Below, piece after piece: positions 18,312 through 55,853 of a stretch of 64,000 nt of DNA (its first letter is position 1; each line of letters opens with the position of its first letter). Both the position numbers and the translations under genes were made by a program. Under the pieces are notes generated by a model. It was not told the origin of the DNA. It did no database searches and saw nothing but the letters and a program-made list of their open reading frames with translations. Location: NCBI RefSeq assembly GCF_900626155.1, contig NZ_LR130844.1, positions 248,001-312,000 of the forward strand, given 5' to 3'. This DNA is from Anaerococcus vaginimassiliensis. GTDB lineage: Bacteria > Bacillota > Clostridia > Tissierellales > Peptoniphilaceae.

Positions 18312-18506
18312 AGGCTGTTGACAAAGTGACAAAATCCAAAAGGAAGCGTTCCATTCGGAAGAAATTTCAAGAAATTCAAATCGAAATAATACGTCCGTAA
18401 ATCGCACTGTTTGAGCATTGGCGAGTTTGCGGTTTCCGGTATTATGAGATTTAGAATCTCTAAATTTCTGTAGCTTAGTAAGCGTTTTTGGATTTAGTCT
18501 ACGCTC
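18312..18506 (+). repeat. Palindromic terminator-associated element, copy A
   Basis: 195 bp, nearly identical to copies at 28646-28841 (inverted) and 55659-55853. Ends share a GACAAAATCCAAAA inverted repeat. Internal pairs such as AGAAATTTC/GAATCTCTAAATTTCT allow the whole unit to fold as one long hairpin, although copy A has diverged in the GTAAATCGCA arm partner. It is bracketed by a direct repeat TTTGCAAAGCTC (18300-18311 and 18512-18523). No protein is encoded; an 84-codon frame across it is a by-product. Confidence 0.85.
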
Positions 18507-18531
18507 TGCGCTTTGCAAAGCTCTGTATATT

Positions 18532-20226
18532 TTATTTCACAAGCGTAAATACTTCGCCCTTCCATTGATTTTGATCTGGAATATTTATTGATTTGCCGAC
18601 ATCTACCTTTCCTTTTAGGTCCTTATTCTTGTTGAAAGCATCTAAATTAAGGTAGAAATTAACTCCATCATTTGTCCATGTCCCAGTAAAAATTTCGTTA
18701 AACTCTTGTTGGTATCTCGCACTTCCATTTTCATATAGAGTAAGGATTGAGTTTTCATTAGATAGGTACTCATTTGCAATCCCATCTGTCCTAACCCTGT
18801 AGGCTGATATATCAGGATCAAACTTTTCTGTGTAAGTTTTATCCTTACCAGTTTTGATTTCCTTTAGGATTTCATCTACACTATAGAAGGCATTGTAAGG
18901 TAAGGATTCTCTTTTAGTCGACCCTTCCTTGGTAAACTTGTGACTTACATTTTGATAGAGCATATCCATATAGGAATACAAATTATCTGAACCTATTGTC
19001 ACATCAGAAAAGTCTACTGCATTGTAGAAGGTGAATTTGCCCTTGTGGCCCTCGATATCCTCTGAAACTGTTATTTCATATAAGAGATATAGTTCATTGC
19101 CCGAATTTTCCTTGTAGGATAAAAGTTCGCCAACATATTTAGCATCGCTTAGGCTAACTCCATTTGGTAGGGACATTTTCGCAATTTTCCCCTTGGCTGC
19201 ATCTTTTAGGCTAGCCAAATCTTCTTCTGATAAATCGCTAACATCTGCTAAAAAGCTAGGAACATCATCTATGGTTATGTCTTTTTCTGTAGTTGAAACT
19301 TTTTTGCCATAATTTTGTGAAAGTGTGTCATTGTCTGCTTCCACTTTTAGCTTTATAGTATCTCCCTTTTGGATTTTACTCTCCTTATCATCTGATACAT
19401 CTACAAAATTCATCTCTTCTGGAGCATCATCTTTGACCTTGATATTAAGGTAATTATTTGGATAAATTCCTTCTACGCTGACATCAACGTAGTCAAATGG
19501 GTCAAACTCGCCCACTTCATCTAGGCCTTCTATACTTACAGTCTCACTTTGAGGGTCAACAAATTCTATCTTGTATTTTTCCTCAACGTCTAGTTTTTGA
19601 TCTTCTGGGATAGTATAAGTAACTGTTAAGTCATCTCCATTTGCTATATTTTCATACTTATCAAGCTCTGCGGGAGCCATATTTTCAATTATTTCTGCCA
19701 AATATTCGTCATAAGGTTCGTCTTTATTAGAAGTAGCTCTGCTTGCAATTTTCCCCTTATTATCAGCTAGAAACTTATCCTTATCAAAAACAAGATTTGC
19801 CGTGGCAAAACCATCTACCCCTTCTAGTTCTATATCATAATAATAGGACACATCTATCTTTTGAGGTCTGGACTTAACATATTTGTAGGAGAAAATACCT
19901 AAAAGAATGACTAAGAGGATAAGAATAATATTTCTCAATCCCCTATTTGAACCCTTAGCTTTTGTACTATCTTCTACTTCCTTATCGAAAGTTTCTTCCT
20001 CTACATAATCTACATTTTCATCATCTTCGATTATTTCCTGATCTTCGTAGGAAAAGTTATCTTCATTTTGGTTTATCTCGTCTTTATCTAATATTTCTGT
20101 ATCGGATTGTTTTTCTTCTGCTAGATCTTTTTCGTAGAAATCTTTACTTCTATCTACCTTAGTTCCGCAATTGGTGCAGAATCTCGCATCATCATCCAGA
20201 GGATGACCACATTTTCTACAACGCAT
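18532..20226 (-). CDS. Zinc-ribbon membrane-anchored protein, extracytoplasmic domain
   Basis: 564 residues. An N-terminal zinc ribbon (C3, C6, C17, C20 in MRCRKCGHPLDDDARFCTNCG) is followed by an acidic linker to about 90, a single membrane segment near 97-115, and a large extracellular part rich in Asp, Glu and Lys with Ig/beta-like segments. The cytoplasmic ribbon and outside domain suggest a sensor or envelope-stress scaffold, but I do not recognise a specific function. It starts 8 bases after the neighbouring zinc-ribbon gene stops, so the pair is co-transcribed. Confidence 0.7.
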   Translation of the reverse strand: MRCRKCGHPLDDDARFCTNCGTKVDRSKDFYEKDLAEEKQSDTEILDKDEINQNEDNFSYEDQEIIEDDENVDYVEEETFDKEVEDSTKAKGSNRGLRNIILILLVILLGIFSYKYVKSRPQKIDVSYYYDIELEGVDGFATANLVFDKDKFLADNKGKIASRATSNKDEPYDEYLAEIIENMAPAELDKYENIANGDDLTVTYTIPEDQKLDVEEKYKIEFVDPQSETVSIEGLDEVGEFDPFDYVDVSVEGIYPNNYLNIKVKDDAPEEMNFVDVSDDKESKIQKGDTIKLKVEADNDTLSQNYGKKVSTTEKDITIDDVPSFLADVSDLSEEDLASLKDAAKGKIAKMSLPNGVSLSDAKYVGELLSYKENSGNELYLLYEITVSEDIEGHKGKFTFYNAVDFSDVTIGSDNLYSYMDMLYQNVSHKFTKEGSTKRESLPYNAFYSVDEILKEIKTGKDKTYTEKFDPDISAYRVRTDGIANEYLSNENSILTLYENGSARYQQEFNEIFTGTWTNDGVNFYLNLDAFNKNKDLKGKVDVGKSINIPDQNQWKGEVFTLVK

Positions 20227-20234
20227 ATCTCCTC

Positions 20235-21266
20235 CTAAAATCCAAACATGTTATTTTCCAAGTATTGAGAGATTTCTTCTACCATAGCTCCCAAGCCTCC
20301 TGTAAGTGGGCCTGCTGCCACACTTGCTACTATTAAAAATACAAGTGGGAATAGGATAAGCGCCAAGGTTGCAGCCTTTGGTATTCCATCTTCCCTAAAT
20401 CTCCTGCTTGCAAAAAGGCTTGAAATTGTATTTGGCAAGCTCAAAAATGTAGCTAGGAAAAATATTGGAAATCCTAAAGCTGTAAACAAGGATAAAACAA
20501 TGGCCAAAAGCTTGACTGGTATTGTATAAATCGCCCTAAGTGAACCAATGGCAAATGATGATTGCATTTCTTTAGTATTTGTAAATACTGCTGTTCCTAT
20601 ATAATAAAGAAGGGCAACTAAAACAGATAAAACTATTGAAGATATAGTTATTACGAAAAATACCTTAATTAGTGGAAATGGCTTATCTGTAAATATTCCA
20701 ATACTGCCAACTGCCTTATTTGCCTTTGACGCATAAATCATTGCAAAAATAGAAGATATAATTCCATTTATCAAATATATTATAAAAGATGACTTATAAT
20801 CAAGACTTGTAATGAGACTTCCACCTTCGCTATAAGGCTTGATAAAGGCATTCCAACCCTTCTTGGTGAGATTTTTAACTATATCTTTGAAATCATTCAT
20901 GCTTTCCTTAGCCTTATCAGCATCGAAATTCATCTTGCTATCAAAATTAGAAGAAGGTCTCTCAGTATTTTCCCTATCGATCTTTTCCTCATTTAAAAGT
21001 TCTTCTTTAATCTCGTTATAATCAATCTTTTCAGTAGGTTTTTCTATAGACTCTTCAAAAGTTTCATCATTATAAGAAACATCCTCTACCTTGTAATCTT
21101 CACTTAATGTGCTTTTATCATAAGAAGAATCTGTACTTACATCTTTTTTGTTAGATGCAAACTGATTTTCATTTTTAGCCTTCCTCTGCCTTTCAAGTTG
21201 AGCTTCTATACAATCACAAACACTATCATCAGCCAACTCTTTGCCGCAATACTTGCAATATTTCAT
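20235..21266 (-). CDS. Zinc-ribbon polytopic membrane protein
   Basis: 343 residues. N-terminal ribbon MKYCKYCGKELADDSVCDC with cysteines at 4, 7, 17 and 19 (closely spaced second pair), an acidic low-complexity linker to about 135, then about five membrane segments (from FIIYLINGIISSIFAMIY to LILFPLVFLIVASVAAG), Yip1-like in layout. It shares the zinc-ribbon plus membrane design with the next gene, and both probably act in one complex. Function unknown. Confidence 0.68.
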   Translation of the reverse strand: MKYCKYCGKELADDSVCDCIEAQLERQRKAKNENQFASNKKDVSTDSSYDKSTLSEDYKVEDVSYNDETFEESIEKPTEKIDYNEIKEELLNEEKIDRENTERPSSNFDSKMNFDADKAKESMNDFKDIVKNLTKKGWNAFIKPYSEGGSLITSLDYKSSFIIYLINGIISSIFAMIYASKANKAVGSIGIFTDKPFPLIKVFFVITISSIVLSVLVALLYYIGTAVFTNTKEMQSSFAIGSLRAIYTIPVKLLAIVLSLFTALGFPIFFLATFLSLPNTISSLFASRRFREDGIPKAATLALILFPLVFLIVASVAAGPLTGGLGAMVEEISQYLENNMFGF

Positions 21267-21299
21267 AATAACACCTCCCTAATAGTATCTATATATTTA

Positions 21300-21328
21300 A
21301 TATTATATTGAAATTAAATTATTGTCAA
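21300..21328 (-). promoter_or_regulatory. Promoter of the zinc-ribbon gene pair
   Basis: -35 TTGACA (21328-21323), 17-bp spacer, -10 TAATAT (21305-21300); ribosome-binding site GGGAGGTG before ATG 21266. Confidence 0.8.
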
Positions 21329-21342
21329 AATTATATACAAAT

Positions 21343-21582
21343 CTACCATAAAAAAGTATTGACATTAGAATAATTCTGCCATAATCTCGAATAAATCCAT
21401 ATACAACTTTGCTCAAATATTAGGTTCCTCAAGTAAGAAGTTGCTATTAACTCTAGCCATGTATTGACTCTTCTTGCTATAAATCTTCTTTCAATTTCCT
21501 CTTCCAAGCTTTTAGCCTTTAAGACTATCTTATTTTTAAAAATAGTATAAAAACACTTATGATAAAGATTCTTTACTAAAAT
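21343..21582 (-). other. Possible remnant reading frame without a start codon
   Basis: A 79-codon open frame with protein-like composition (includes KSLEEEIERRFIARRVNTWL and YLRNLIFEQSCIWIYSRLW) but no ATG; the first TTG is about codon 26 and there is no ribosome-binding site. It may be the tail of a decayed gene. On the opposite strand a TTGACA-17-TAATCT promoter (21359-21387) reads through it. From 21583 to 21733 I see nothing else. Confidence 0.25.
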
Positions 21583-21733
21583 TCATACTTTAAAAATAAA
21601 TAAACTCACCACTTAAATCTTAGAATAATAGTTAATTATAAAAATCGGTCCTAGTATAACTGGACTTAACACCGAAATTTAGAATACAGTTGTAGGTTTT
21701 TTATTGAATAGTGCACAAAACTTTAAGACAAAA

Positions 21734-21788
21734 TTAAGCGGAATGTCAACTGTTGATTACAGATTACATTCCGCTTAAAATATTATTA
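21734..21788 (-). terminator. Terminator of the ABC exporter operon
   Basis: A 13-bp perfect stem TTAAGCGGAATGT / ACATTCCGCTTAA with a 29-nt loop, followed by TTTT on the minus strand. The loop is unusually long for a terminator. Confidence 0.6.
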
Positions 21789-21834
21789 AGTTATTCCTGT
21801 TTACGACTTCAGGTCAGTTTTAGACTTAAATTTT

Positions 21835-23697
21835 TTAGTCAAGTTCTAGTTGACCTGTGTATAGTTGCCAGTAGGTTCCCTTTTCTTCCATCAATTTATC
21901 GTGGTTACCACGTTCTATTATTCTTCCGTCTTCCATTACCATGATTACGTCAGAGTTTTGGATGGTGGATAGTCTGTGAGCTATTACTATTGATGTTGAA
22001 CCTGTCATTAGATTATCCATAGCTTCTGTTACTTCTAGTTCTGTAGATGTGTCTATAGAGCTTGTGGCTTCGTCTAATATTAGCATTGGTGGTTCGGCTA
22101 TTGCAGCTCTTGATATTGATATAAGTTGGTTTTGACCATCTGATAGGGATGATCCATCGCCATGTATTTTAGTATCGTAGCCTTCAGGGAGTCTTTTGAT
22201 GAAGGAATTTGCTCCTGATAGTCTAGCTGCTGAGGATATTTCTTCATCGCTTGCAGATAGATTTCCATATCTGATGTTTCCTTCTATAGAATCTGTAAAT
22301 AGGTTTACTTCTTGTAATACCATACCAAAGGCTTTTCTTAGGGCATCTTTCTTGATGTGTTTGATATTTATTCCGTCAACTTCTATTACACCATCGTCTA
22401 TCTCATAGAATCTTGTTATGACGTTTGTAATTGTGGTCTTGCCTGCACCGGTTGATCCAACGAAGGCGATTTTTTCACCTGGATCTGCGTAGAACGAAAT
22501 GTCTTTTAGGATTTGGTTTTTGCCATCATAGGAGAAGTCTACATTTTTAAATTCAAGTCTACCTTCTAGTATCTTGTATTTTACTTCGCCATCTTCTTCC
22601 CATTTCCAAGCATATCTACCGCTCATTGATTCGTGTTCTACTATAGTTCCGTCTCTTTTGACAATTGCATTTACAAGGTCAATATAGCCTGTGTCGATTT
22701 CTTCTTCCATATCGATTATTTCAAATATCCTATCAGCTCCTGCTAGGGCTTGGAAGATTGCGTTTGCTTGTTGGGAAATATTTACTATTGGGTTTTGTAT
22801 TTGTCTAATGTTTGATAGAAAAGCAGCTAGAACTCCTACTGTGATATTTCCTTTTATTGTTAGGTAAACTCCAAGGACAGTAATTAGAGCATATAGAATG
22901 TTTACTGAGTTTTGCAAGAAAGGCATGATTTTTCCTGCATTTATTGTAGCATCAGCGAAGGCTTCTCTTAAGTTTTGAGATTTCTTTACAAATTCATTTT
23001 CTGCATAGTCTTCTCTTGAAAATACCTTGACTACCTTTTGACCAGATAGCATTTCTTCGTTAAAACCATGTAGGTCAGCTACCTTGGCTTGGGCGCTTGC
23101 AAAGAATTTTCCAGTTCTCATTACTATCTTTGATAGGATTGGAATCATTATTGCAAGTCCTACTAGCATGGCAAGTGTTAGACTGAAGTTTAGTCTAAAC
23201 ATTACAACTATTGTTCCTACAAACATTAGTAAAGACCTAATTATCGTTGGAACTGTGTTTGCCAAAGCTTGGGATAATACGTCAGTATCGTTTGTGAACC
23301 TACTCATGATCTCCCCGTGTTGGTTAGTATCAAAAAAGCTAACTGGTAGGTCTTGGATTTTGGCAAAGAGCTCGTTTCTGATGTTTCTTATTGATCTTTC
23401 TCCTACTCTTACCATAAGTCTTGAGTAGATTAAAGATGTTAGGGCAGATACAAAATAGATTAGTCCCATTTTGATTACTGCATTTTTTAGGCCGCTAACG
23501 TCAGCTTTTAGGATGTAGTTATCTATAATAGGTCTTAGCATATTGACACCCCATATTTGAGTTAAGGTTGATACTATTACTCCTATTATAATTACTGCCA
23601 TTTGCCATTTATAACGAAAAAGATAGCCCAATAGTCGACCTATTGATTTAAAGGACATTTTGCTTTTATCTTTTTGTGATGAAAGTTTATTAGTCAT
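21835..23697 (-). CDS. ABC exporter half-transporter (second subunit)
   Basis: 620 residues: six-helix ABC membrane domain (about 20-310) fused to a nucleotide-binding domain with Walker A GSTGAGKTT, Q-loop, signature LSDGQ (not LSGGQ) and Walker B LILDEATSSID. An insertion of about 45 residues before the ATPase domain contains WKWEEDGEVKYK. The frame opens 10 codons earlier, but ATG 23697 is 7 nt behind AAGGAGGT and overlaps the previous stop (ATGACTAA). Pairs with the adjacent exporter gene as a heterodimer; substrate unknown, multidrug-like. Confidence 0.9.
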   Translation of the reverse strand: MTNKLSSQKDKSKMSFKSIGRLLGYLFRYKWQMAVIIIGVIVSTLTQIWGVNMLRPIIDNYILKADVSGLKNAVIKMGLIYFVSALTSLIYSRLMVRVGERSIRNIRNELFAKIQDLPVSFFDTNQHGEIMSRFTNDTDVLSQALANTVPTIIRSLLMFVGTIVVMFRLNFSLTLAMLVGLAIMIPILSKIVMRTGKFFASAQAKVADLHGFNEEMLSGQKVVKVFSREDYAENEFVKKSQNLREAFADATINAGKIMPFLQNSVNILYALITVLGVYLTIKGNITVGVLAAFLSNIRQIQNPIVNISQQANAIFQALAGADRIFEIIDMEEEIDTGYIDLVNAIVKRDGTIVEHESMSGRYAWKWEEDGEVKYKILEGRLEFKNVDFSYDGKNQILKDISFYADPGEKIAFVGSTGAGKTTITNVITRFYEIDDGVIEVDGINIKHIKKDALRKAFGMVLQEVNLFTDSIEGNIRYGNLSASDEEISSAARLSGANSFIKRLPEGYDTKIHGDGSSLSDGQNQLISISRAAIAEPPMLILDEATSSIDTSTELEVTEAMDNLMTGSTSIVIAHRLSTIQNSDVIMVMEDGRIIERGNHDKLMEEKGTYWQLYTGQLELD

Positions 23698-25453
23698 TGT
23701 CGCTACCTCCTTGTTGTTGAATATCATAAGTCATTCTGTAGTTGGCATTTCTTTGGTAAAGCTCATCGTGAGTTCCAATATCGGCAATCTTTCCCTCGTC
23801 CATGACTATGATTCTGTCTGCTTGTTTGAAGGATGAAACCCTTTGTGAGATTATAATCTTGGTTAATCCCTTTAGATTTTCGTTTATTCCCTCCATAATA
23901 GCTGTTTCTGTCTTTGTATCAACAGCTGAAGTTGAGTTGTCTAAGATTAGGATTTTTGGATTTTTAAGTAAAGATCTTGCTATGGTTAGTCTTTGCCTTT
24001 GACCACCTGATACACCACTTCCCCCTTGACCTAAGATAGATTCGTAGCTATCGTGTCTTTGCCTTACAAAATCATCTGCTTGGGCAATAGTTGCAGCAAG
24101 TTTTATTTCTTCTTCGCTGGCATCTGGATTTCCCCAACGAAGGTTGTCAGCAATAGTTCCTGAAAATAGAGTGTTTTTTTGTAGTACAATAGTTACTGCA
24201 TCTCTTAGGGTTTGTAGGTCGTATTCTTTTACGTCATGGCCTCCAACTTTGAGACTTCCCTTACTTATATCATATAGCCTTGGAATAAGTTGAACTAGGG
24301 TTGACTTGGCTGAACCTGTTGGTCCAAGTATACCAATAGACTCCCCACTTTTTATGTGAAGGTTTATATCTTCTAGCTGGTAGGTGTCATATCCTTCTTC
24401 GTAAGTAAAGGATACATTGTCAAAATCAATTGATCCATCTTCTAATTCTAGTCCTTCTACCTTGTCATCATTATCCATAGAAGGCTCTCTCGAGATAACT
24501 TCTACCACACGAGTAACCCCTGGAGATGCTGACATAAACATTGTAAGAACCATGCTTAGTCCAATAAATGATCCTAAAAGCATTATGGCATACATATTAA
24601 AGGAAATTAAATCTCCTACTCCAAGTCTTCCCTCTATGATTTCTATTCCACCAAAATAGGTTAATCCTACAAATGTTCCAAATAGAATAAAGTTTGCTAT
24701 CGGAAAAATATATGACATTGGACCTTGTGATCCATCAGCTAATTTAAACATCTTGTCATTTTGGATACCAAACTTATCTAGTTCATATCTTTTTCTAACG
24801 AAAGCCTTGATAACTCTCATATTGTTTAAGTTTTCTTCTATAACCAAGTTTAGATTATCGTATTGGAAACGAGCTTGTCTAAATTTTGGTATAGCATAGG
24901 TTGTTACTAACATCAAGGCTATAAATAAAATTGGTACAGCCACTAGGAATATCAAAGATAATTTTGAACTTGCTTTGAAGGCAAGCACAAATGAAACTAC
25001 TGCCATCACAACAGTCTTTATGACAAATCTAGTTGAAACAAACATAGATTGAGATAGTTGTTGCATATCTGATGTTAGTCTTGTAAGTAATGATGGTACT
25101 CCAAAATATTCCAAGTCCTCAAAAGAAAATCTTTGGATATTTTTATACTGAGCCTCTCTTGCATTGGCAGCAAGCCCTGTTGATGTAAGACCTGCATGTT
25201 TTGACGCTTGAACTCCACAATACATGGTGATGATGGATAAAACCACCATGAATAGTCCATACTTCAAAGCAAGATTCAAGTCTTTTTCATAGACTGCAGT
25301 ATTTAAAGTTACACCCATCATCATAGGTATCAAAAGCTCTAGGATAGTTTCAATAGCTGTAAACACTTGTGAAGTCATCCTATTTTTTTTGTATTCGCCA
25401 AGGTAGCATTTCATATATGAAAAGGCCTTGTTGAATTCTTTAATACTATTCAT
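23690..25453 (-). CDS. ABC exporter half-transporter (first subunit)
   Basis: 587 residues, same architecture: membrane domain about 20-320, then Walker A GPTGSAKST, signature VSGGQ, and LILDNSTSAVD, in which the catalytic glutamate after Walker B is replaced by Asn. That marks the degenerate ATPase site of a heterodimeric exporter (LmrCD/BmrCD-like), the partner keeping the Glu. It starts by ATGA overlap with the MarR gene upstream, so MarR, subunit 1 and subunit 2 form one operon. Confidence 0.92.
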   Translation of the reverse strand: MNSIKEFNKAFSYMKCYLGEYKKNRMTSQVFTAIETILELLIPMMMGVTLNTAVYEKDLNLALKYGLFMVVLSIITMYCGVQASKHAGLTSTGLAANAREAQYKNIQRFSFEDLEYFGVPSLLTRLTSDMQQLSQSMFVSTRFVIKTVVMAVVSFVLAFKASSKLSLIFLVAVPILFIALMLVTTYAIPKFRQARFQYDNLNLVIEENLNNMRVIKAFVRKRYELDKFGIQNDKMFKLADGSQGPMSYIFPIANFILFGTFVGLTYFGGIEIIEGRLGVGDLISFNMYAIMLLGSFIGLSMVLTMFMSASPGVTRVVEVISREPSMDNDDKVEGLELEDGSIDFDNVSFTYEEGYDTYQLEDINLHIKSGESIGILGPTGSAKSTLVQLIPRLYDISKGSLKVGGHDVKEYDLQTLRDAVTIVLQKNTLFSGTIADNLRWGNPDASEEEIKLAATIAQADDFVRQRHDSYESILGQGGSGVSGGQRQRLTIARSLLKNPKILILDNSTSAVDTKTETAIMEGINENLKGLTKIIISQRVSSFKQADRIIVMDEGKIADIGTHDELYQRNANYRMTYDIQQQGGSDND

Positions 25454-25893
25454 ATATCCTCCTTTTTAAAATTTTCGCTAATAGATTCCACCAAAAGTTC
25501 CATGTCTTTGGTGATTCTTTTAACATTGTCCTCTCCCAAACTCTCATACATTCTTCTATTCGCCTCATCTAAAGGAATGAGAATTTCATCTCTTCTTTCT
25601 CTTCCCTTATCAGTCAGAAAAAGATTTTTTGCTCTCTTGTCTTTTTCATCTGTCATAAGCTTGACATAACCTTTTTCCTTGAGGTTCATAATAGCACTAT
25701 TCATAGTCTGTTTGGGAACTTTGAACTTGTTACATAAATTTTTCTGTTTTACTTTTTCAGTCATTCCTACATGGATAAGAATGACACTTTCTAAATCATT
25801 TAATCCATAAAAGCTCGCTCTTTCCCTATTTAAGCCATTCGCTTTTCTTAATAGTGAAAAGATATTGAGCATGGATTTTAGTTTCTTATCCAT
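25450..25893 (-). CDS. MarR family repressor of the ABC exporter operon
   Basis: 147 residues with a MarR winged helix (NLCNKFKVPKQTMNSAIMNLKEKGYV and wing MTDEKDKRAKNLFLT). Start ATG 25893 lies 5 nt behind AAAGGAG; a GTG ten codons earlier lacks a ribosome-binding site and lies too near the promoter. First gene of the exporter operon, and a dyad sits between its own -35 and -10, consistent with autorepression relieved by a drug-like ligand. Confidence 0.88.
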   Translation of the reverse strand: MDKKLKSMLNIFSLLRKANGLNRERASFYGLNDLESVILIHVGMTEKVKQKNLCNKFKVPKQTMNSAIMNLKEKGYVKLMTDEKDKRAKNLFLTDKGRERRDEILIPLDEANRRMYESLGEDNVKRITKDMELLVESISENFKKEDI

Positions 25894-26903: not shown

Positions 26904-28626
26904 TCAATTAGAAAAAATTAGACAATACAACATAATCTGGGATTTTGCCAAGAATTATAAGTTTTTACCTAAGAAATCTTATCCTATGGATAATATCTAC
27001 CTAAACATGATAACAGGCTATAAGATAAAGGCTTTTGATTTCAAAATCCTGGATTCCTTTTTTTCCTATATAAAAAAGGACAATATGTTTTATGATGATT
27101 TTAAGTTTATGGCAGAAATCCTCATGGAAGATATTTCCTATAAGGAAATCTCCAAGGATAATTTGGTAATAGAAGAACTTAGGAAAAAACACGCCAGAGA
27201 TATAATGGCAAAATATCAAGTTCACGAACCAAACAACCTAACAGAACAAATAGAAAAAGCCTATTACGGCAAAATCTTAGGTCGTCCTATCACTGAAGGG
27301 AAACTTTTTAGAGATATATATAAGGCTTTATTTAGTATAAATACTACAGAAACTACAGAGCTTATAGATAAACTAAATGAGTTTTTTGAAAATTATTTTC
27401 GTTTTGATAGGTCAGCTAAGGACCGTGATACCTTCAAGGAAATGGTTAAGGAAAATAAACCCAAAGAATTTGATAAGGATAATGAAGCGGATGATAAAAA
27501 CGCTGAGTATACTGATGAATACATCAACGATCAGTTTGGTATAGGATCGGCTGAGTTTACTGGAAATATCTATCTTGCTGAGAAAAAAGAAGACAACAAC
27601 AAAAACTTGATGTTTTTAAATAAGGGTGAGGATACCTACCACTCTTCTTCTGAGTTCATCGAAGATTTCTATGGCCTGTCAATCCTTCCAGAAGAAAAAG
27701 TAAATGCCCTTGAACATAAATTAGCAAAAGGAATCCACTCCGGCAAGAGATTATATTTTACTAGAGGAGAATATTCTACCAAAGCAAATGCTAGGTTTTA
27801 TAAAAAAGGAAGAAAGGAACAAGCTGAAAAAAACGAAGCCTATATCAAGGAAAATATGGCTATCAACAACAGGTCCATAAACGAGCTTACCTTATCAATT
27901 AAAAACTCCATAGCAAATTTCCTATACTATAATGAAGTATACAAAAACTATGGAGCCATTGATTCGACTAAGGCATGGAGAGCCGGCGTCCTTCACGATT
28001 ATGATGTTTTTATAAATGAAGAAAGTGAAGATATAACAAAGTTTAAGGTTGATCTAATCCTCGATGGATCTGCTAGTCAAATCGGCCGCCAAGCCATGGT
28101 TGCGAACGAAGCCTACATCATAGCAAAGGCTATGGATGCTCTTAATATTCCAATAAGGATAATGAGCTTTTCAACCCTAAGAGACTTTACAGTATTTAAT
28201 CTTTATAGGGACTATGACGAGAAAAATAATAACGATGAAATATTTAACTTCTTCGCATCTGGTTCTAATAGAGACGGCCTTGCCTTTAAAACTATCCACG
28301 AACTAATAGAAAAAGATGATGAAAGTACAAAAAATATTGTCATCGTCCTATCTGACGGCAAACCTCACGATGAGAGAAGTAATATCAATACCATAAAGCT
28401 TTTAGATAAGGACCAATATGTAGACGATAATGCTGTAAAAGATACCGCCAAAGAAGTTAGAAAAATAAAGGAAGATAACATTTCAATCTTAGGCGTCTTT
28501 ACTGGAGAAGAAGAAGATGTGGAAAATGCCAAGCTAATCTATAACACTGACTTCTGTAGGATAACCAACCTAGAAAACTTCTCCAAAATCGTATCAATCT
28601 TTATGAAAAATCAAATACTCCAATAA
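26896..28626 (+). CDS. VWA-domain partner of the MoxR ATPase
   Basis: About 576 residues if ATG 26896 is used; it overlaps the moxR stop by 8 bases, and a GTG three codons earlier is the alternative. The C-terminal third is a von Willebrand A domain with the metal site DGSAS (about 390-394), a conserved threonine region and LSDGKPHD. The N-terminal two thirds are helical and charged, like CobT/NorD-type proteins. Together the pair probably acts as a cytoplasmic metal-insertion or complex-activation chaperone; the client is not encoded nearby. Confidence 0.78.
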   Translation: MNDQLEKIRQYNIIWDFAKNYKFLPKKSYPMDNIYLNMITGYKIKAFDFKILDSFFSYIKKDNMFYDDFKFMAEILMEDISYKEISKDNLVIEELRKKHARDIMAKYQVHEPNNLTEQIEKAYYGKILGRPITEGKLFRDIYKALFSINTTETTELIDKLNEFFENYFRFDRSAKDRDTFKEMVKENKPKEFDKDNEADDKNAEYTDEYINDQFGIGSAEFTGNIYLAEKKEDNNKNLMFLNKGEDTYHSSSEFIEDFYGLSILPEEKVNALEHKLAKGIHSGKRLYFTRGEYSTKANARFYKKGRKEQAEKNEAYIKENMAINNRSINELTLSIKNSIANFLYYNEVYKNYGAIDSTKAWRAGVLHDYDVFINEESEDITKFKVDLILDGSASQIGRQAMVANEAYIIAKAMDALNIPIRIMSFSTLRDFTVFNLYRDYDEKNNNDEIFNFFASGSNRDGLAFKTIHELIEKDDESTKNIVIVLSDGKPHDERSNINTIKLLDKDQYVDDNAVKDTAKEVRKIKEDNISILGVFTGEEEDVENAKLIYNTDFCRITNLENFSKIVSIFMKNQILQ

Positions 28627-28643
28627 GCAGGAATTATCTTGCT
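28626..28643 (+). repeat. Upstream duplicate of the VWA-gene terminator hairpin
   Basis: AGCAGGAATTATCTTGCT, 17 of 18 bases identical to 28843-28860, begins on the last base of the VWA stop codon. It lacks a T-run because palindromic element copy B lies between it and the intact terminator. Confidence 0.75.
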
Positions 28644-28645
28644 TA

Positions 28646-28841
28646 GAGTGTAGACAAAATCCAAAAACGCTTACCCAACTACAGAAATTTAGAAATTCTA
28701 AATCTCATAATACTGTAAATCGCAAACTCGCTAATGCTCAAACAGTGCGATTTACGGACGCATTATTTCGATTCGAATTTCTTAAAATTTCTTCCGAATG
28801 GAACGCTTCCTTTTTGGATTTTGTCACTTTGTAAACAGTCT
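28646..28841 (-). repeat. Palindromic terminator-associated element, copy B
   Basis: 196 bp, the inverted orientation of copies A and C. Clear terminal inverted repeat (ACAAAATCCAAAAA at one end, TTTTTGGATTTTGT at the other) and internal GTAAATCGCA/TGCGATTTAC pair. It is bracketed by the duplicated 18-base terminator hairpin. The GTCTAC end faces the stop codon of the terminated gene, as in the other two copies. Confidence 0.85.
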
Positions 28842-28842
28842 G

Positions 28843-28866
28843 AGCAGGAATTATCCTGCTTTTTTA
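28843..28866 (+). terminator. Terminator of the moxR-VWA operon
   Basis: AGCAGGA-ATTA-TCCTGCT followed by TTTTTTAT, now more than 200 bases from the VWA stop because of the element insertion. Confidence 0.8.
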
Positions 28867-48180: not shown

Positions 48181-48201
48181 CTAAATTCCTATTCTAAAAA
48201 A

Positions 48202-49429: not shown

Positions 49430-49820
49430 AATTTCTTCCACCTGCTATATAAATAAATATCATGATTGTCGTAAATACTAGGATACTAGCTATATAATAA
49501 ATACTTTTCCCACTTTCCACAAAGGGATTAAAAAGATAGGAAGTTAAGGTAAAAGCTTTGCTCTTTCTTATATATTCTATCACATAAATGATAGAACCTA
49601 CATTGTACATGGCAATTATTATAGCCAAAATATTGCTGCTTAGCTTTAGTTTGTTACGTTTTATGTATAAAAAACATAAAGCTAGCAAAATAAAGCAAAG
49701 AATCAAATAGGGGACAAGCCTATTTTCTTTTACAAAAACTCCAAGACTAAGCATAAAGGCTAAAATCGTTAGACATTTTATTTCATTCGTTGATTTTTCT
49801 GTCAAAATTCTACCCTCCAT
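49413..49820 (-). CDS. Small four-helix membrane protein
   Basis: 135 residues with four hydrophobic segments (about 16-32, 37-53, 62-80, 107-126) and no motif I recognise. ATG 49820 overlaps truA by 19 bases; a TTG five codons later (49805) has a better-spaced GGAGGG and may be the true start. Its overlap with the DUF4097-like gene suggests the two act together. Confidence 0.6.
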   Translation of the reverse strand: MEGRILTEKSTNEIKCLTILAFMLSLGVFVKENRLVPYLILCFILLALCFLYIKRNKLKLSSNILAIIIAMYNVGSIIYVIEYIRKSKAFTLTSYLFNPFVESGKSIYYIASILVFTTIMIFIYIAGGRNYGKEE

Positions 49821-50542
49821 AGGTAAAGTCCCTCTGCTCCCAAGGCTGGGTTTGCTCTTTTGGTATTTTCTTTATCAAAAAACTTCTCGTAATCATCTAG
49901 GCTAATTCTACCACGGGCAAGCTCTATGAGAGATCCAACCATAATCCTTACTTGGTTGTGGAGGAAGGATTCTCCCTTAAAATATATTTCAAGATCTGTA
50001 CCGTTTTCTATAAAATAGGCTTCTTCTATAGTTCTTACTGTATTTATCGAAAGATTCTTATCTTCCATCATAAACAACTTAAAATCATGCGTGCCAACTA
50101 AAAGCTTTAGTCCTTCTTCTAACTTTTTTAAGTCAAGCTTATAGGTTACATGTTCCTTGTAATTTCTATATATTGGATGCATATCCTTACTCCTACATAT
50201 AACATACTTGTATAGCTTGGATTTGGCAGAAAATCTCGCATGAAAGTTTAAATCAACTTCCCTAGATGAGATCGCTAATATATCATCTGGCAAATGGGGT
50301 TGGATTTGAAACTTAAATCCAATAGGATTTATATCACTTGCCGTTAGAAAATTTACAAAGTGACTTTTGGCGTGGACTCCACTGTCAGTTCTCCCACAAG
50401 AAACTATCCTATTTTCTTCTCCTGTTACCTTTCTGATGGCCTTAGTTAATTCTTCTTCTACACTTCTTTGATCTTTCTGGTACTGAAAGCCTGAAAAAAG
50501 AGCCCCATCATATGAGGTCTCTAGCAAAATATTTTTAATCAT
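49802..50542 (-). CDS. truA: tRNA pseudouridine synthase A
   Basis: 246 residues. Catalytic Asp in GRTDSGVHA, plus FHARFSAKSKLYKYVI and FLHNQVRIMVG. Makes pseudouridine at positions 38-40 of tRNA. The frame is open 20 codons upstream, but ATG 50542 overlaps the ecfT stop as ATGA and begins MIKNILLETSYDG as in homologues. Confidence 0.94.
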   Translation of the reverse strand: MIKNILLETSYDGALFSGFQYQKDQRSVEEELTKAIRKVTGEENRIVSCGRTDSGVHAKSHFVNFLTASDINPIGFKFQIQPHLPDDILAISSREVDLNFHARFSAKSKLYKYVICRSKDMHPIYRNYKEHVTYKLDLKKLEEGLKLLVGTHDFKLFMMEDKNLSINTVRTIEEAYFIENGTDLEIYFKGESFLHNQVRIMVGSLIELARGRISLDDYEKFFDKENTKRANPALGAEGLYLWRVEF

Positions 50543-51333
50543 ACAAAGTGCATTACTATAACTACTAGACAAAAGATAGTAAAGAGGATTATAGTTGTCC
50601 AATCTTTCCTATCCATGCTTATTTCATTGAGCTTTGTCCTATCGTGGCCTATCCTATACATCCTAGCTTCCATTGCTGTTGCTAGATCGTCACTTCTTTT
50701 AAAGGAGTTGATAAATAGGGGAACTAAGAGAGGAATCATGCTCACTGCCCTATTTATAATGTTACCTGATTCAAAGTCAGCTCCCCTCGCCATTTGCGCC
50801 ATCCTTATTTTTTGTGCTTCGTCAAATAAGGTTGGGATAAAACGAAGAGATATAGAAATCATCATAGCAAGCTCACCTGCAGGAAAACCAAATCTCTTTA
50901 GAGGTGAGAAAAGTTTCTCCAAACCATAGGTTAATTCCATGGGACTAGTCGTATAAGTTAGAACTGATGTTGCAAGAATTATAAGGATCAATCTAAGTAT
51001 TGTAAATCCTGTCCTATATAATCCTTCTTTTGTTATAGTTACAGGACCAATCGTCCAAAGGGCTGTTCCTCCTGTTGTAACTAAGTTAATTATACCCGTT
51101 ATCACTATGATAAATATCAATGGCTTTAGGGATTTAAAGATTGCCTTTAGGGGAATCTTTGAAACTATTAGCATGGCTAAGAGTAGGATAACAAAAGGAA
51201 GGTATCCTAAAAATGAATCCACAAAAAATATGGTGATTATATACAAAAATACTCCCACTATTTTTACCCTAGGATCTAGCCTATGGATAAAGGTATCAAA
51301 GGGAAGGTATTGTCCGATACTAATGTTTCCCAT
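50539..51333 (-). CDS. ecfT: ECF transporter transmembrane subunit EcfT
   Basis: 264 residues, about six membrane segments, and the two coupling Ala-Arg-Gly type motifs AQMARGADF and ATAMEARMYR that contact the ATPases. Shared membrane module for vitamin-binding S components. Overlaps ecfA2 by 14 bases and truA by four. Confidence 0.94.
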   Translation of the reverse strand: MGNISIGQYLPFDTFIHRLDPRVKIVGVFLYIITIFFVDSFLGYLPFVILLLAMLIVSKIPLKAIFKSLKPLIFIIVITGIINLVTTGGTALWTIGPVTITKEGLYRTGFTILRLILIILATSVLTYTTSPMELTYGLEKLFSPLKRFGFPAGELAMMISISLRFIPTLFDEAQKIRMAQMARGADFESGNIINRAVSMIPLLVPLFINSFKRSDDLATAMEARMYRIGHDRTKLNEISMDRKDWTTIILFTIFCLVVIVMHFV

Positions 51334-52183
51334 CTTCGCCCCCTAAAACTCTACTTAATTCTTCAATGGCAGCATCTACTGTGTAGATATCATCACGAAC
51401 TTCTGGATTTTTCTTCTTGTAGGCTCTCATAAACTTGGTAATTTGTGGTATGTCTAGTCCTATCGAATCTAGGTCTACTTGGGTGAAGGTATCATAGGTA
51501 GATTTATCCGAATAAACTTCTCCCTTATTCATTACAATAACTCTATCCACATATTCTGCCACATCTTCCATGGAGTGACTTACAAGTACTATAGATAGCT
51601 CAGGGTCGTTTTCATATAAATTCATTATCTCAGAAAATATTTCATCTCGACCTATTGGATCAAGGCCTGCTGTTAGCTCATCTAAAACTAAAACCCTAGG
51701 GTTCATAGAAAGGATACCTGCGACAGCTACCCTTCTTTGTTGACCACCCGATAGTTCGAATGGAGATTTATCCTTGTAGGTTTCATAGTCGAGACCAACT
51801 TTCTCCATGGACATTTTTACTCTTTTGGAAACTTCCTCATCTGATAAGCCCATGTTTTTTGGTCCAAAGGCTATATCTTTTTCTATGCTTTCTTCAAAAA
51901 GTTGGTTTTCTGGATATTGAAAGACGAGCCCTACCTTAAATCTCGCCTCTTTTCTTCTTTTTTTATCTTTTGAGTTGATTCCATCTATAGTACAATCACC
52001 CTTACTTGGGATAAGTAGGCCGTTTAGAAGTTGGACTAGGGTTGACTTCCCAGATCCAGTTTGACCGATTAGACCTACTACCTCGTGGGAATTTATATTT
52101 AAATTTATATCCTTTAGGGCGTACACCTCAGAAGGAAGTCCCTCATTGTAGATGTAATCAACATTGTTTAGTTCTATTTTCAT
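51320..52183 (-). CDS. ecfA2: ECF transporter ATPase EcfA2
   Basis: 287 residues. Walker A GQTGSGKST, signature LSGGQQRR, Walker B LVLDELTAGLD (Leu in place of Pro, typical of EcfA2). Overlaps ecfA1 by four bases. Confidence 0.94.
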   Translation of the reverse strand: MKIELNNVDYIYNEGLPSEVYALKDINLNINSHEVVGLIGQTGSGKSTLVQLLNGLLIPSKGDCTIDGINSKDKKRRKEARFKVGLVFQYPENQLFEESIEKDIAFGPKNMGLSDEEVSKRVKMSMEKVGLDYETYKDKSPFELSGGQQRRVAVAGILSMNPRVLVLDELTAGLDPIGRDEIFSEIMNLYENDPELSIVLVSHSMEDVAEYVDRVIVMNKGEVYSDKSTYDTFTQVDLDSIGLDIPQITKFMRAYKKKNPEVRDDIYTVDAAIEELSRVLGGEDGKH

Positions 52184-53004
52184 ATAGTTTCTAAAAACTC
52201 CTCGATATTTAGTGGAAGCTTATCAAGCGTAATCCCCTTGTTTTTAAGCTCATAGGCAACTTCTGTTACCTGAGGAACAGCAAGACCTAATTCTTTCATC
52301 TTACTTACCTGAGAAAATACTTCCCTAGAAGATCCTTCTAAGGCCTTTCTTCCCTTATCTAAGACAATTATCTTATCTGCAAGGACTGCCTCTTCCATGT
52401 AGTGGGTAATGTATATTATAGTCTTGCCGTACTTTTTATTTAAGTCTTTTACAAGGTTAATTACATCTTTTCTACCCTTTGGGTCAAGCATGGCAGTTGG
52501 TTCATCAAAGATTATATAATCAGATAGCATAGCTATAACGCCTGCTATGGATACTCTTTGCTTTTGTCCACCTGAAAGGTTTGATGGATTTCTCTTTTTA
52601 AAATCTGTCATTCCGACAAGGTCAATGGCATTATCTACTCTTTCTCTTAGTTCAGGATTTGGCACAGCTAAGTTTTCTGGCCCAAAGGCTACCTCTTCTT
52701 CGACAGTTGTTGCAACCATTTGATTATCTGGATTTTGAAATACCATGGAACATTTTTCCCTAATATCCCAAATACTATCTTCATTTTTGCTATTTATATC
52801 ATCTACCCAAATATCTCCCGAAGTTGGCATTATCTGAGCATTTAAGAGCTTGCCTAGGGTTGATTTGCCAGAACCATTGTGACCTAAGATTGCTACAAAT
52901 TCTCCCTTTTTAATCTCAATTGATAAATTGTCTAGGGCCTTTTTTTCTTCCGTCTCATCCTCTGACTGAGGGTAGATGTAGGTTAAATTTTCTATTTTAA
53001 TCAT
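52180..53004 (-). CDS. ecfA1: ECF transporter ATPase EcfA1
   Basis: 274 residues. Walker A GHNGSGKST, signature LSGGQKQR, Walker B IIFDEPTAMLD. Forms the ATPase pair with EcfA2. Eight bases after the L,D-transpeptidase gene. Confidence 0.94.
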   Translation of the reverse strand: MIKIENLTYIYPQSEDETEEKKALDNLSIEIKKGEFVAILGHNGSGKSTLGKLLNAQIMPTSGDIWVDDINSKNEDSIWDIREKCSMVFQNPDNQMVATTVEEEVAFGPENLAVPNPELRERVDNAIDLVGMTDFKKRNPSNLSGGQKQRVSIAGVIAMLSDYIIFDEPTAMLDPKGRKDVINLVKDLNKKYGKTIIYITHYMEEAVLADKIIVLDKGRKALEGSSREVFSQVSKMKELGLAVPQVTEVAYELKNKGITLDKLPLNIEEFLETI

Positions 53005-53012
53005 TATTTTTC

Positions 53013-54419
53013 CTAATAAATCATCGCTGGTGAGTTGTTAGTTGATGATTCGTAAACTACTACTGGTGTGTGAACTTCAACATTGTTAAAGACAATTTCT
53101 GCTACACTTGGTGGGAGATTCAAGCAACCGTGGCTACCGTCGTATTGGTAAATGTCACCACCAAATGAATATCTCCAATCTGCATCATGGAAGCCTTCGC
53201 CATCCCAACCGATTGGCATCCAAAATCTAACTGGGGTCTTGTACCTGTCTCCAACAAATCCAACTCCTTCTAGAGTTGTGTTGGTGTTTTTAGAAAGGAT
53301 TGAACCAACACCTACATTTGTTTGCCATCCACCTTGATTGATACCAGTCACTAGAGGAGATTCTACAATTAGCTCTCCATTCTTGTAAAACCACATGTAT
53401 TGGCGAGAAATATCTACTTCTATATAAGTATTTCCTAAGTCTGAGCCGTCTTCTTCTCTATTGTAAGCGTATCTTTCATAAACAGGTTCGACATCTCCGC
53501 TTTTTCTTTGGTTAAATAGCTTTAAGACTTCATCTCCTGTCGCTGATTGGTCTAGGACAAAGCCATATACACCAGGATTTACAACGATCTCACCTATACC
53601 TGTAGCATTAAACTTCCTATCTTTACCATAAGTATCTGTTTTATCTGCTATACCTGCCATAAATTCCATTAGCTTGTCATAGTCTATTTGAAACTTCTCG
53701 CCCTCTTGGTAAATCATATTTACAAGATCTTCACCCTTTAGTTTTAGATCAAAACCATTGAAGTTAAACTTGATATTCATAGCTTCGATCTTCTTGGCAT
53801 CTTCTTCAAGAGCCTTTAATTCTGGTGAATCTGATAGGACTGTTGGACTTTCATAGAAATCATCTTCAAGTTTGATGTCCTTATGATCTGTAGATATAGC
53901 TCTAATAATATCGTCCTTAACCTTAGTGTAGTCTAGCTTGTTACCCATTACTGCATCTTTTAGCTCAAAGCTATCTCCCTTAAAGACGACTCCCGCATCT
54001 TCTGGTTCTGTAATATTTGTAAAAAGCGGACTTCCCTTTAGGATTTCGTCTAGTTTTTCTTCATCATAAGAAATTTTGTAATCAAATTTAAGTTGGTCTT
54101 TCTTTAACCCAACCATATTAAGTGGCCAAGCAAATGGATTTTGGTCAATACTCGCATTAGCTGGAATTGTAGCATTATAATCAATTTGATCAGAATCTAG
54201 ATTTAATTTTCTATCATCTCTACCACTAACTTCTAGGTCAAATCTCTCGCCAACTTCCTCCAAGGCTGATTCCCTGGAAGCAAAAGAAACATTCTTACCA
54301 TTGATATAGGTATTTGGTAGGGTTATAAACGTAAATACAAGACTTCCTACTAGATAAATACCTGCTATTATTAATAAAACCCAAAGCCAAGCTCTGGATT
54401 GTTTCTTATTATCTGTAAT
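53013..54419 (-). CDS. L,D-transpeptidase (YkuD) with an ATT start
   Basis: 468 residues if begun at ATT 54419-54417, five nt behind GGAGG (54429-54425), which itself runs into the TAG stop of the preceding gene. From that stop to codon 53 there is no ATG, GTG or TTG in frame; the first TTG (54263) would remove the membrane anchor (about 10-33). With the ATT start the order is anchor, PG-binding-4-like domain (about 55-290), and a YkuD domain (about 335-460) with SHGCLN (H430, C432). It cross-links peptidoglycan 3-3 or attaches proteins. In operon with rRNA methyltransferase and ecf genes. Confidence 0.85.
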   Translation of the reverse strand: MTDNKKQSRAWLWVLLIIAGIYLVGSLVFTFITLPNTYINGKNVSFASRESALEEVGERFDLEVSGRDDRKLNLDSDQIDYNATIPANASIDQNPFAWPLNMVGLKKDQLKFDYKISYDEEKLDEILKGSPLFTNITEPEDAGVVFKGDSFELKDAVMGNKLDYTKVKDDIIRAISTDHKDIKLEDDFYESPTVLSDSPELKALEEDAKKIEAMNIKFNFNGFDLKLKGEDLVNMIYQEGEKFQIDYDKLMEFMAGIADKTDTYGKDRKFNATGIGEIVVNPGVYGFVLDQSATGDEVLKLFNQRKSGDVEPVYERYAYNREEDGSDLGNTYIEVDISRQYMWFYKNGELIVESPLVTGINQGGWQTNVGVGSILSKNTNTTLEGVGFVGDRYKTPVRFWMPIGWDGEGFHDADWRYSFGGDIYQYDGSHGCLNLPPSVAEIVFNNVEVHTPVVVYESSTNNSPAMIY

Positions 54420-54428
54420 AATATCCTC

Positions 54429-55559
54429 CTAATCTCTCTTTGGTCTATCGCCAAAATATTGGTAATAGTCTACCTTCTCGCCACCATTGTAGAGCTTTCT
54501 CTTCTTTGATAGCTTTCTTTTAAAGAATCTATCAAACTTCTCATCTGCTGTTACAAAATACAAGGACCAAGTCCTAAGTTTCATAAACTTATCGTCTATC
54601 TTTTTGTAGATTTCATCCAAATTAGTATCAGATAATCTCATACCATAAGGTGGATTTGATATCAAAATCCCATAATCATCACGACTTATGGCTAGGGATG
54701 ATACATCTCTTTTGACAAAGGCTATATCTTCCTCTACACCTGCATTTAGGGCGTTGTTTTTGGCAAGGCTAATTGCTCTACCCGAAATATCAGATCCTAG
54801 GATATGAAGTTTCTTATCATAGTCAATTCTTTCAAGTGCTTCTTTTTTAGACCTGTCATAATAGCTCTTATCCATAAAAATAAAATGTCTAAAATCAAAG
54901 TCCCTGTCAATACCAGGTGCAATATTTCTAGCCTTTCTTGCTGCCTCGATTAGGATTGTACCTGACCCGCAGAAGCTATCTATTAAAAACCTATCTGGAT
55001 TGTAAAAAGATAAATCAACTAGGGCTGCTGCCAAGTTTTCCCTAAGAGGTGCCTTTACAGAATCTTCCCTATAGCCTCTCTTATGTAGACCATCACCAGA
55101 AGTATCTATATTGACACTTGCCATATTTCTATCAAGCATTATTTCAATATTTACTCTCTCATTTGATTTTGGGAAAATCTTCCTCTTATAAGTTTTCCTT
55201 AGGGAATCTATGATTGCCTTCTCTGAGATAGATTGGATAGATCTTAGGGAGAAAAGCTTAGACTTATATGTTCTAGCATTTACTATAAAATTTGACTCTT
55301 CTGATAGAAAATCAGACCAAGTTATAGCCTTGATATTTTCAAAAAGCTCTTCAAAACTAAGAGCTTTAAACTCCTTTATCCTAAGATAAACCCTATCGGC
55401 ACACCTTAAATTTATATTTAATTTTGCAACATCTTCTAAGTTTGCCAAAAGCTCTATCATTCCATCACTTACGGTGAGATTCTCATAGCCCATATCCATA
55501 AGCTGTCTTTTAACTAAAGCTTCCATGCCGAAACTTGTTGTAATCAATATTTTTTCCAT
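54429..55559 (-). CDS. THUMP-domain 23S rRNA (guanine-N2) methyltransferase, RlmL/YpsC-like
   Basis: 376 residues. N-terminal THUMP RNA-binding domain (about 45-155), then a class I methyltransferase with DSFCGSGTILIEAA (SAM loop) and SNPPYG (catalytic NPPY). Modifies a guanine in 23S rRNA by analogy with RlmL/K; the exact position is inferred. A TATAAT lies only six bases before ATG 55559 and there is no ribosome-binding site, so the transcript may be leaderless. First gene of the eight-gene operon ending at 48257. Confidence 0.9.
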   Translation of the reverse strand: MEKILITTSFGMEALVKRQLMDMGYENLTVSDGMIELLANLEDVAKLNINLRCADRVYLRIKEFKALSFEELFENIKAITWSDFLSEESNFIVNARTYKSKLFSLRSIQSISEKAIIDSLRKTYKRKIFPKSNERVNIEIMLDRNMASVNIDTSGDGLHKRGYREDSVKAPLRENLAAALVDLSFYNPDRFLIDSFCGSGTILIEAARKARNIAPGIDRDFDFRHFIFMDKSYYDRSKKEALERIDYDKKLHILGSDISGRAISLAKNNALNAGVEEDIAFVKRDVSSLAISRDDYGILISNPPYGMRLSDTNLDEIYKKIDDKFMKLRTWSLYFVTADEKFDRFFKRKLSKKRKLYNGGEKVDYYQYFGDRPKRD

Positions 55560-55565
55560 GCTTAT

Positions 55566-55571
55566 ATTATA
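55566..55571 (-). promoter_or_regulatory. -10 box of a possibly leaderless operon
   Basis: TATAAT at 55571-55566, six bases upstream of the methyltransferase ATG, with no recognisable -35. A start seven bases downstream of the box would fall on the A of the ATG. Confidence 0.5.
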
Positions 55572-55636
55572 ACGTATTTAATCTATTTTTCACCTATATT
55601 TTTTTAAATATATTTATTTATAATTTGTATAAAAAA

Positions 55637-55657
55637 ACAGGAGATTTTTTCTCCTGT
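55637..55657 (-). terminator. Terminator hairpin of the hydrolase gene, distal copy
   Basis: ACAGGAG / CTCCTGT around a 7-base loop, followed by TTTTTTT on the minus strand. Identical over 24 bases to the sequence ending at 55877, with the palindromic element between them. Confidence 0.85.
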
Positions 55658-55658
55658 A

Positions 55659-55853
55659 AGGCTGCCTGCAAAGTAACAAAATCCAAAAGTAAGCGTTCCA
55701 TTCGGAAGAAATTTTAAGAAATTCAAATCGAAATAATGCGTCCGTAAATCGCACTGTTTGAGCAATGGCGAGTTTGCGATTTACAGTATTATGAGATTTA
55801 GAATTTCTAAATTTCTATAGTTGGTTAAGCGTTTTTGGATTTTGTCTACGCTC
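55659..55853 (+). repeat. Palindromic terminator-associated element, copy C
   Basis: 195 bp, same orientation as copy A. Terminal inverted repeat ACAAAATCCAAAA / TTTTTGGATTTTGT and internal GTAAATCGCA / TGCGATTTAC. Lies exactly between two identical 24-base copies of the hydrolase terminator, its GTCTAC end facing the hydrolase stop codon. Confidence 0.88.

What the first reader, a model, noticed from the sequence alone, without database searches (positions are those of the whole stretch)
18312..55853. A 195-bp palindromic element that inserts at transcription terminators in one orientation and duplicates the target sequence
Seen: three near-identical copies (18312-18506, 28646-28841, 55659-55853) of 195, 196 and 195 bp. 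Each has a terminal inverted repeat around ACAAAATCCAAAA and can fold into one long hairpin. The flanks differ between loci but match within each locus: 24 identical bases at copy C (a full terminator hairpin), 17 of 18 at copy B (a full terminator hairpin), 12 at copy A. In all three the GTCTAC end faces the stop codon of the terminated gene. Inference: a MITE-like element, moved in trans, that recognises intrinsic terminators or their RNA hairpins directionally and duplicates an unusually long target. Group IIC introns and some other elements are known to target terminators, but this element has no intron or protein features.
Basis: partly seen in the sequence, partly recalled or inferred. 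Interest (0 to 1): 0.8.

Follow-up and report, generated by a model that had tools for sequence, protein, structure and literature searches.

The report
Mobile element that duplicates terminator hairpins
Short DNA parasites in this bacterium jump into the hairpins that end transcription and copy the whole hairpin to their other side, which suggests that their IS1182-type transposase reads the shape of the DNA rather than its sequence.

Summary
The three copies belong to a 12-copy family in this genome, probably an Anaerococcus. They are non-autonomous elements (MITEs) with ends CAGAnCGTAGACAAA...TTTGTCAACAGYCTG. Eighty-nine elements from the genus, preselected for repeated flanks, carry duplications of 14-31 bp; in 86 a hairpin lies inside the duplication, in 70 centred to the base. 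The clear orthologous empty sites carry one hairpin. Full-length IS1182-family insertion sequences, some in the same genus, have the same ends and also duplicate whole hairpins, as do relatives in Enterococcus, Providencia and Streptococcus phages. A second IS1182 clade in the genus lacks the duplication and, at the one site tested, replaced the hairpin, as published for IS1272. Hairpin and terminator targeting by IS1182 elements is thus known; whole-stem-loop duplication had been drawn only as a hypothetical pathway (Wan 2017). New, as far as my searches reach: duplication that follows hairpin length, its MITEs, and a clade split between duplicating and replacing enzymes. Orientation is a bias (44 against 18), not a rule. 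The window's genome has no recognised IS1182 transposase, so its copies look like orphans. Strand transfer at the feet of a cruciform is inference.

The parts
18310..18509 (-). Copy A, MITE (strand = sense of the terminated gene; GTAGAC end at 18509 side)
18300..18311 (.). Copy A, repeated flank TTTGCAAAGCTC, left copy (overlaps the element end by 2 bases)
18512..18523 (.). Copy A, repeated flank TTTGCAAAGCTC, right copy
28643..28843 (+). Copy B, MITE (GTAGAC end at 28643 side)
28626..28643 (+). Copy B, terminator hairpin copy 1, AGCAGGAATTATCTTGCT; overlaps the TAA stop (28624-28626) of the upstream gene
28843..28860 (+). Copy B, terminator hairpin copy 2, AGCAGGAATTATCCTGCT, followed by the T-tract
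55658..55853 (-). Copy C, MITE (GTAGAC end at 55853 side); its other end is diverged (TTTGCAGGCAGCCTT)
55634..55657 (-). Copy C, 24-base repeated flank, left copy, contains hairpin ACAGGAGATTTTTTCTCCTGT (55637-55657)
55854..55877 (-). Copy C, 24-base repeated flank, right copy, contains the same hairpin (55857-55877)

Best explanation
The 195-bp unit is a miniature, transposase-less element mobilised by an IS1182-family insertion sequence. Shown from sequence: MITEs of this group share their terminal repeats with full IS1182-family elements; both insert at stem-loops, mostly intrinsic terminators; and the two hairpin copies are one target sequence duplicated over its whole length. Inferred: the transposase brings the two element ends to a cruciform extruded at the terminator and joins them at the feet of the two opposed stem-loops; gap filling then copies the stem-loop. 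That would explain why the duplication is centred on the dyad and follows the hairpin's length instead of being fixed. The downstream hairpin copy keeps the T-tract, so the host gene should keep a complete terminator. The clade that deletes the hairpin would join at the opposite feet (pathway drawn in Wan 2017).
For: Duplications of 14-31 bases in 89 preselected elements, hairpin inside 86, exactly centred in 70. Outer six positions complementary 85% at the true place, 36% and 46% one base away, 51% on average (maximum 58% in 500) with permuted lengths. Empty sites with one hairpin: L027 against L104; L152 against L120 and L125. Unselected: 9 of 12 copies in G000; 71 of 81 exact end-motif places run into a hairpin against 43 of 400 random places; 20 of 49 testable places (19 elements) show the duplicated hairpin against 0 of 240. 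Mobiliser: L256, 1658 bp, exact 16-base ends, IS1182 transposase at 352.9 bits over a cut-off of 270, 25-bp hairpin duplication. In the genus: G028 (3 copies examined of 5), G029, G007. Outside: Enterococcus, Providencia, three Streptococcus phage records.
Against: G000 has no IS1182 match, nor have the MITE-bearing genomes G001, G003, G009, G019 and G030, so a source is missing in those cells today. In 80 of 86 folds the pairing runs on beyond the duplication into the A/T tracts, so the cut is at the GC/AT border of the stem, not at its last possible pair. One ISEfa7-annotated copy on the duplicating side of the tree has no duplication, and ISCfr1 has no hairpin duplication. 29 of 49 testable places showed no recognised duplication. 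Three of the 12 G000 copies do not beat the control. No transposition was observed.
Confidence: 0.82

Rival explanations
1. The enzyme reads sequence borders (A-tract, GC-richer patch, T-tract), not secondary structure; hairpins appear only because terminators have that make-up.
For: The base before the duplication is A in 67 of 89 and the base after is T in 70 of 89; the duplication is 38% GC and the 8+8 flanking bases 9%. The predicted stem often continues into the tracts.
Against: The borders track the dyad to the base in 70 of 86, with a sharp drop one base away and with permuted lengths. Some targets lack one tract, such as L065, where the ends fall at a mismatch within a longer stem. Published IS1272 targets have no primary sequence consensus.
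Confidence: 0.15
2. The transposase, or the element, recognises the terminator hairpin in nascent RNA or on a paused polymerase, not the DNA.
For: Orientation bias relative to the gene, 44 against 18; targets are mostly terminators.
Against: The bias is weak; a symmetrical duplication of double-stranded DNA needs cuts on both strands, which a DNA cruciform gives directly. A published TnSha1 insertion lies in a hairpin inside a coding region (PMC4923244 passage).
Confidence: 0.1
3. Doubled terminators around a resident palindromic repeat: host sequences (two terminators, or a regulatory 3' element) rather than a transposition product.
For: The interior is a strong palindrome, and some sites are filled in more than one species.
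Against: Empty sites with one hairpin, the same ends with unrelated interiors, and transposase-bearing elements with the same behaviour.
Confidence: 0.02

Closest known systems
IS1272 and TnSha1 (IS1182 family), stem-loop-replacing transposition (PMC5678879, PMC4923244; abstract and passages, or passages, seen)
   Same: IS1182 family; target stem-loops, many of them transcription terminators, without sequence consensus.
   Different: They delete the hairpin and leave no duplication; the elements here duplicate the whole hairpin. IS1272 itself was not placed in my tree; an IS1272-bearing record matches the duplicating transposase at 26% over 55%.
IS1182-family elements of the duplicating clade, e.g. 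ISEfa7-like and the Streptococcus phage copies
   Same: Related transposases (about 47-55% identity to the G028 protein), near-identical ends, hairpin duplication in 4 of these (L422, L427, L428, L429).
   Different: They carry a transposase gene; the window's units do not. The ISEfa7 copy looked at has no duplication.
IS1182 MITEs of Methanosarcina acetivorans (PMC3852290, passage seen)
   Same: Short non-autonomous derivatives of an IS1182 element.
   Different: The table there gives 4 and 0 where direct-repeat lengths are listed; no hairpin duplication is described in the passage.
IS1202 family, long-duplication subgroup (PMC10132070, passages seen)
   Same: Unusually long duplications of 16-28 bp.
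   Different: Ends TGT...ACA and a TnsB-like transposase; target of that subgroup not known there. The one full hit in the genus (G017) has other ends.
Group IIC introns (recalled)
   Same: Insert at terminators.
   Different: Rfam finds no intron in the window; as I recall they make no long duplication.

Membership tests
IS1182 family (autonomous partner) | Transposase above the curated IS1182 cut-off | tested here: met
   L256: 352.9 bits over 270; 8 of 31 genus genomes above the cut-off, G000 none.
IS1182 family (autonomous partner) | Terminal repeats shared with the MITEs | tested here: met
   30 of 89 MITEs match full elements over 16-19 exact bases, all but one of the 25 printed at an element end; G028 ends differ from the MITE ends at one base on each side. 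Window copies A and B have 15 of 16 at the TTTGTC end; copy C's is diverged.
IS1182 family (autonomous partner) | Palindromic or stem-loop target in some members | tested here: met
   Hairpin duplication in L256, G028 x3, G029, G007, L422, L424, L427-L429; not in L423 and L425; L392 and L426 unresolved.
MITE | Short, no transposase, terminal inverted repeats, target duplication, many copies | tested here: met
   144-573 bp, end repeats, duplications, 12 copies in G000.
MITE | Mobilised in trans by the related transposase | not testable with these tools
   G028 holds both full elements and MITEs, but movement was not observed.
IS1272-type replacing element | Target stem-loop removed, no duplication | tested here: not met
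   Whole hairpin duplicated.
Group II intron | Intron RNA domains | tested here: not met
   Rfam at gathering thresholds finds only three tRNAs in the window.
IS1202 family | Ends TGT...ACA with TnsB-like transposase | tested here: not met
   Ends are CAG...CTG; ISNCY_2 hits in the genus are not bounded by these ends.
REP/RAYT elements | Y1 transposase partner | not tested
   No Y1 search was run; a target duplication argues against it.

The most novel reading that the evidence does not exclude
A DDE transposase whose cut spacing is set by the target's secondary structure: it attacks the four-way junction of an extruded cruciform, so the duplication equals the hairpin whatever its length. Within one family, two clades attack opposite feet of the same structure: one duplicates terminators, the other deletes them and (inference) brings a terminator of its own.
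Probability: 0.5. Interest if true: 0.78.

Novelty: new variant of a known kind. Interest (0 to 1): 0.62.

Why it matters
Most DDE transposases give a fixed, short duplication (textbook knowledge, recalled). Here the duplication tracks a structure, which offers a natural assay for cruciforms in living cells and a test of how DDE enzymes read shape. The duplicating and replacing clades occur in the same genus and use the same kind of target, so they are a ready-made pair for finding what decides which foot is attacked. The elements also account for doubled terminators and extended 3' regions in several phyla, and give a target rule for a broad IS1182 clade.

Tried and rejected
Transposase candidates: HTH_38/IS30-type in 31 genomes, IS1202/ISNCY-type in 31 and rve-domain in 10. 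Among the loci fetched for these none was an autonomous element bounded by these ends. L242 looked like one but is, by its ends and split orfA/orfB transposase, an IS3-type element inserted inside a MITE (no family search was run on it). blastn with copy C (window 55640-55880) finds nothing in the phage or plasmid collections. Of 22 viral contigs places only 4 run into a hairpin, against 11 of 110 controls, so they look like chance.

Selection: 245 end matches in the fetched loci, 168 with a repeated flank at score >=22 (many seen on both strands), 151 by position and length, 106 by unique downstream sequence, 97 unique elements, 89 with an ungapped duplication. The 89 include one overlapping pair at L103 and some insertions shared between species, so they are not 89 independent events, and they give no rate. 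Of six cross-genome rows with a short gap, three are clear empty sites; L157/L166 and L162/L082 also align as filled sites, and L149/L065 is unclear. In one search 18 rows for copy B and 9 for copy C were printed, the own locus included in each; several were on the other strand and useless. Left unresolved: L392, L426, L430, L432 and L433. ISfinder and the Siguier reviews are not held in the library.
Full report
Observation. The three copies are real and lie where stated. The genome (G000, one contig of 1.84 Mb) has 12 copies, and 25 of 101 genomes searched, the own included, have a match. I take the window to be an Anaerococcus by that inference.

Anatomy. Read on the strand of the terminated gene the layout is: A-tract, hairpin copy 1, CAGAnCGTAGACAAA, a palindromic interior, TTTGTCAACAGYCTG, hairpin copy 2, T-tract. 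The end motif TTTGTCAACAGYCTGA with up to 2 mismatches occurs 64 times in G001, 40 in G007, 56 in G014, 17 in G028 and 9 in G000, against 0, 0, 1, 1 and 2 for the control pattern. In many relatives the interior is unrelated to that of the 195-bp unit while ends and behaviour are the same.

Duplication equals hairpin. From the fetched stretches I collected 97 unique elements that had a repeated flank; 89 have a clear ungapped duplication of 14-31 bases, 87 of them 16-25. In the rebuilt empty site a hairpin lies in the duplication in 86 of 89, with its centre exactly on the duplication's centre in 70. The outer six positions are complementary in 85% at the true place, in 36% and 46% one base to either side, and in 51% (maximum 58% in 500 rounds) if lengths are permuted. 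The repeat is locus-specific: 12 of 7832 cross-pairings reach the score that all 89 own pairs reach, which was also the entry threshold. This sample is preselected; three tests are not. In G000, 9 of 12 copies reach score 12, against 2 of 132 cross-pairings. Among 81 exact end-motif places in public genomes 71 run straight into a stem of at least 7 pairs, against 43 of 400 random places. Of 49 of these with enough upstream sequence, 20 (19 elements, L256 being seen on both strands) show the duplicated hairpin against 0 of 240 controls; 29 do not. Hosts among the 19 include Bacillus timonensis, Sutcliffiella, Peribacillus, Caloranaerobacter, Melioribacteraceae and Martelella.

Empty sites. The locus of element L027 (G007) is empty in G001 (L104), with 95% and 86% identical flanks and one hairpin; that of L152 (G001) is empty in G014 (L120) and G009 (L125). 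Orthologous sites of window copy B in G006, G019 and G012 and of copy C in G028 carry a single terminator of other spelling (read by eye). I saw no empty site with two copies of one hairpin.

Mobiliser. Locus L256, a Bacilli metagenome-assembled genome, has a 1658-bp element with exact 16-base ends, a 465-aa transposase and a perfect 25-bp hairpin duplication. The protein is IS1182 family (352.9 bits, cut-off 270; Pfam DUF772, DDE_Tnp_1_6 and DDE_Tnp_1). In the genus 15 of 31 genomes have IS1182 matches, fragments included, 8 above the cut-off; G000 has none, nor have the MITE-bearing G001, G003, G009, G019 and G030. Full elements in G028 (three copies examined of five), G029 and G007 have these ends, one of the GCG and one of the CTG type as in the MITEs, with hairpin duplications of 21, 22, 26 (one mismatch), 23-25 and about 17 bases; the right end of the G007 copy is eroded and its duplication was read by eye. 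G028 also carries MITEs. Outside the genus, copies in E. casseliflavus (19), Providencia (21) and three Streptococcus phage records (26, 22, 24) do the same; one ISEfa7-annotated copy has no duplication, ISCfr1 has at most a 6-base repeat, and L426 was not resolved.

Two clades, two outcomes. A second IS1182 group in the genus (G011, G015, G020, G021; about 520 aa; ends GGGGCTGTTGCAAAA...GCAACATCACC) shows no duplication in the seven loci examined. One site was tested for replacement: at L409 the relatives G020, G028 and G016 have a hairpin between A- and T-tracts where G011 has the element and no hairpin. That agrees with what is published for IS1272. In a tree of 19 transposases the 9 duplicating and 6 non-duplicating proteins (five of the genus and one from an E. 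faecalis plasmid, labelled by lack of a duplication) fall on opposite sides with 100/100 support; four unlabelled rows are not counted, of which the ISEfa7 copy lies on the duplicating side; several branches are long, and IS1272 itself is not in the tree. By eye, all seven loci of the second group carry a terminator-like hairpin with a T-run just inside one end (no terminator scan was run). I infer that they bring a substitute for the terminator they remove, while duplicating elements leave the host's own.

Mechanism. Shown: target, duplication, shared ends, family, clade split. Inferred: joining of element ends at the feet of an extruded cruciform, with gap filling. Its strong point is that a four-way junction has the same geometry whatever the arm length. 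Its weak point is that predicted pairing mostly runs on into the A/T tracts (80 of 86), so the cut falls at the GC/AT border of the stem and not at its last possible pair.

Orientation. The GTAGAC end lies toward the stop codon in 44 informative contexts against 18, the other 27 of 89 being uninformative, by a crude reading of flanking frames. It is a bias only.

Prior knowledge. Furi 2016 (PMC4923244, passages) and Wan 2017 (PMC5678879, abstract and passages) established hairpin and terminator targeting with loss of the hairpin by TnSha1 and IS1272, and quote a review that some IS1182 members target palindromes. Wan et al. drew whole-stem-loop duplication as a possible pathway. PMC12056078 (passages) says that IS1182 elements act with or without duplication and may read a DNA structure. 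PMC3852290 (passages) lists IS1182 MITEs in Methanosarcina acetivorans. I found no report of whole-hairpin duplication or of the clade split in the searches, of which I read passages of eight papers; ISfinder was not available.

Noticed in passing
L103 2323-2734 (G001:C4): Two MITE insertions in a row at one terminator, leaving three hairpin copies.
   Followed up: no
L242 980-2834 (G007:C1): An IS3-type element sits inside a MITE, giving a 1.85-kb composite with MITE ends.
   Followed up: partly
L009 (G000 726960-727144): The flanks look like two halves of one stem instead of two hairpins, as if the element sat in the loop.
   Followed up: no
L408 (G015:C1 near 1316583): A non-duplicating IS1182 element ends directly at a MITE, as if it had replaced the MITE's upstream hairpin copy.
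   Followed up: no
L397, L409, L421, L398, L408, L410, L420: Non-duplicating IS1182 elements carry a terminator-like hairpin with a T-run just inside one end (by eye).
   Followed up: partly
G000:C1 908424-934152: Four copies of one rve-domain transposase gene (320 aa) within 26 kb.
   Followed up: no
L257, L269, L272, L278, L282 and other genome-contig loci: 32 of 81 end-motif places lie too close to a contig edge to test upstream, as expected for a multi-copy full-length IS; many show an inverted partial copy of the end about 40 bases inside.
   Followed up: no
L196 (G017:C3): A 500-aa ISNCY/IS1202-like transposase at a contig edge near a terminator, with other ends.
   Followed up: no
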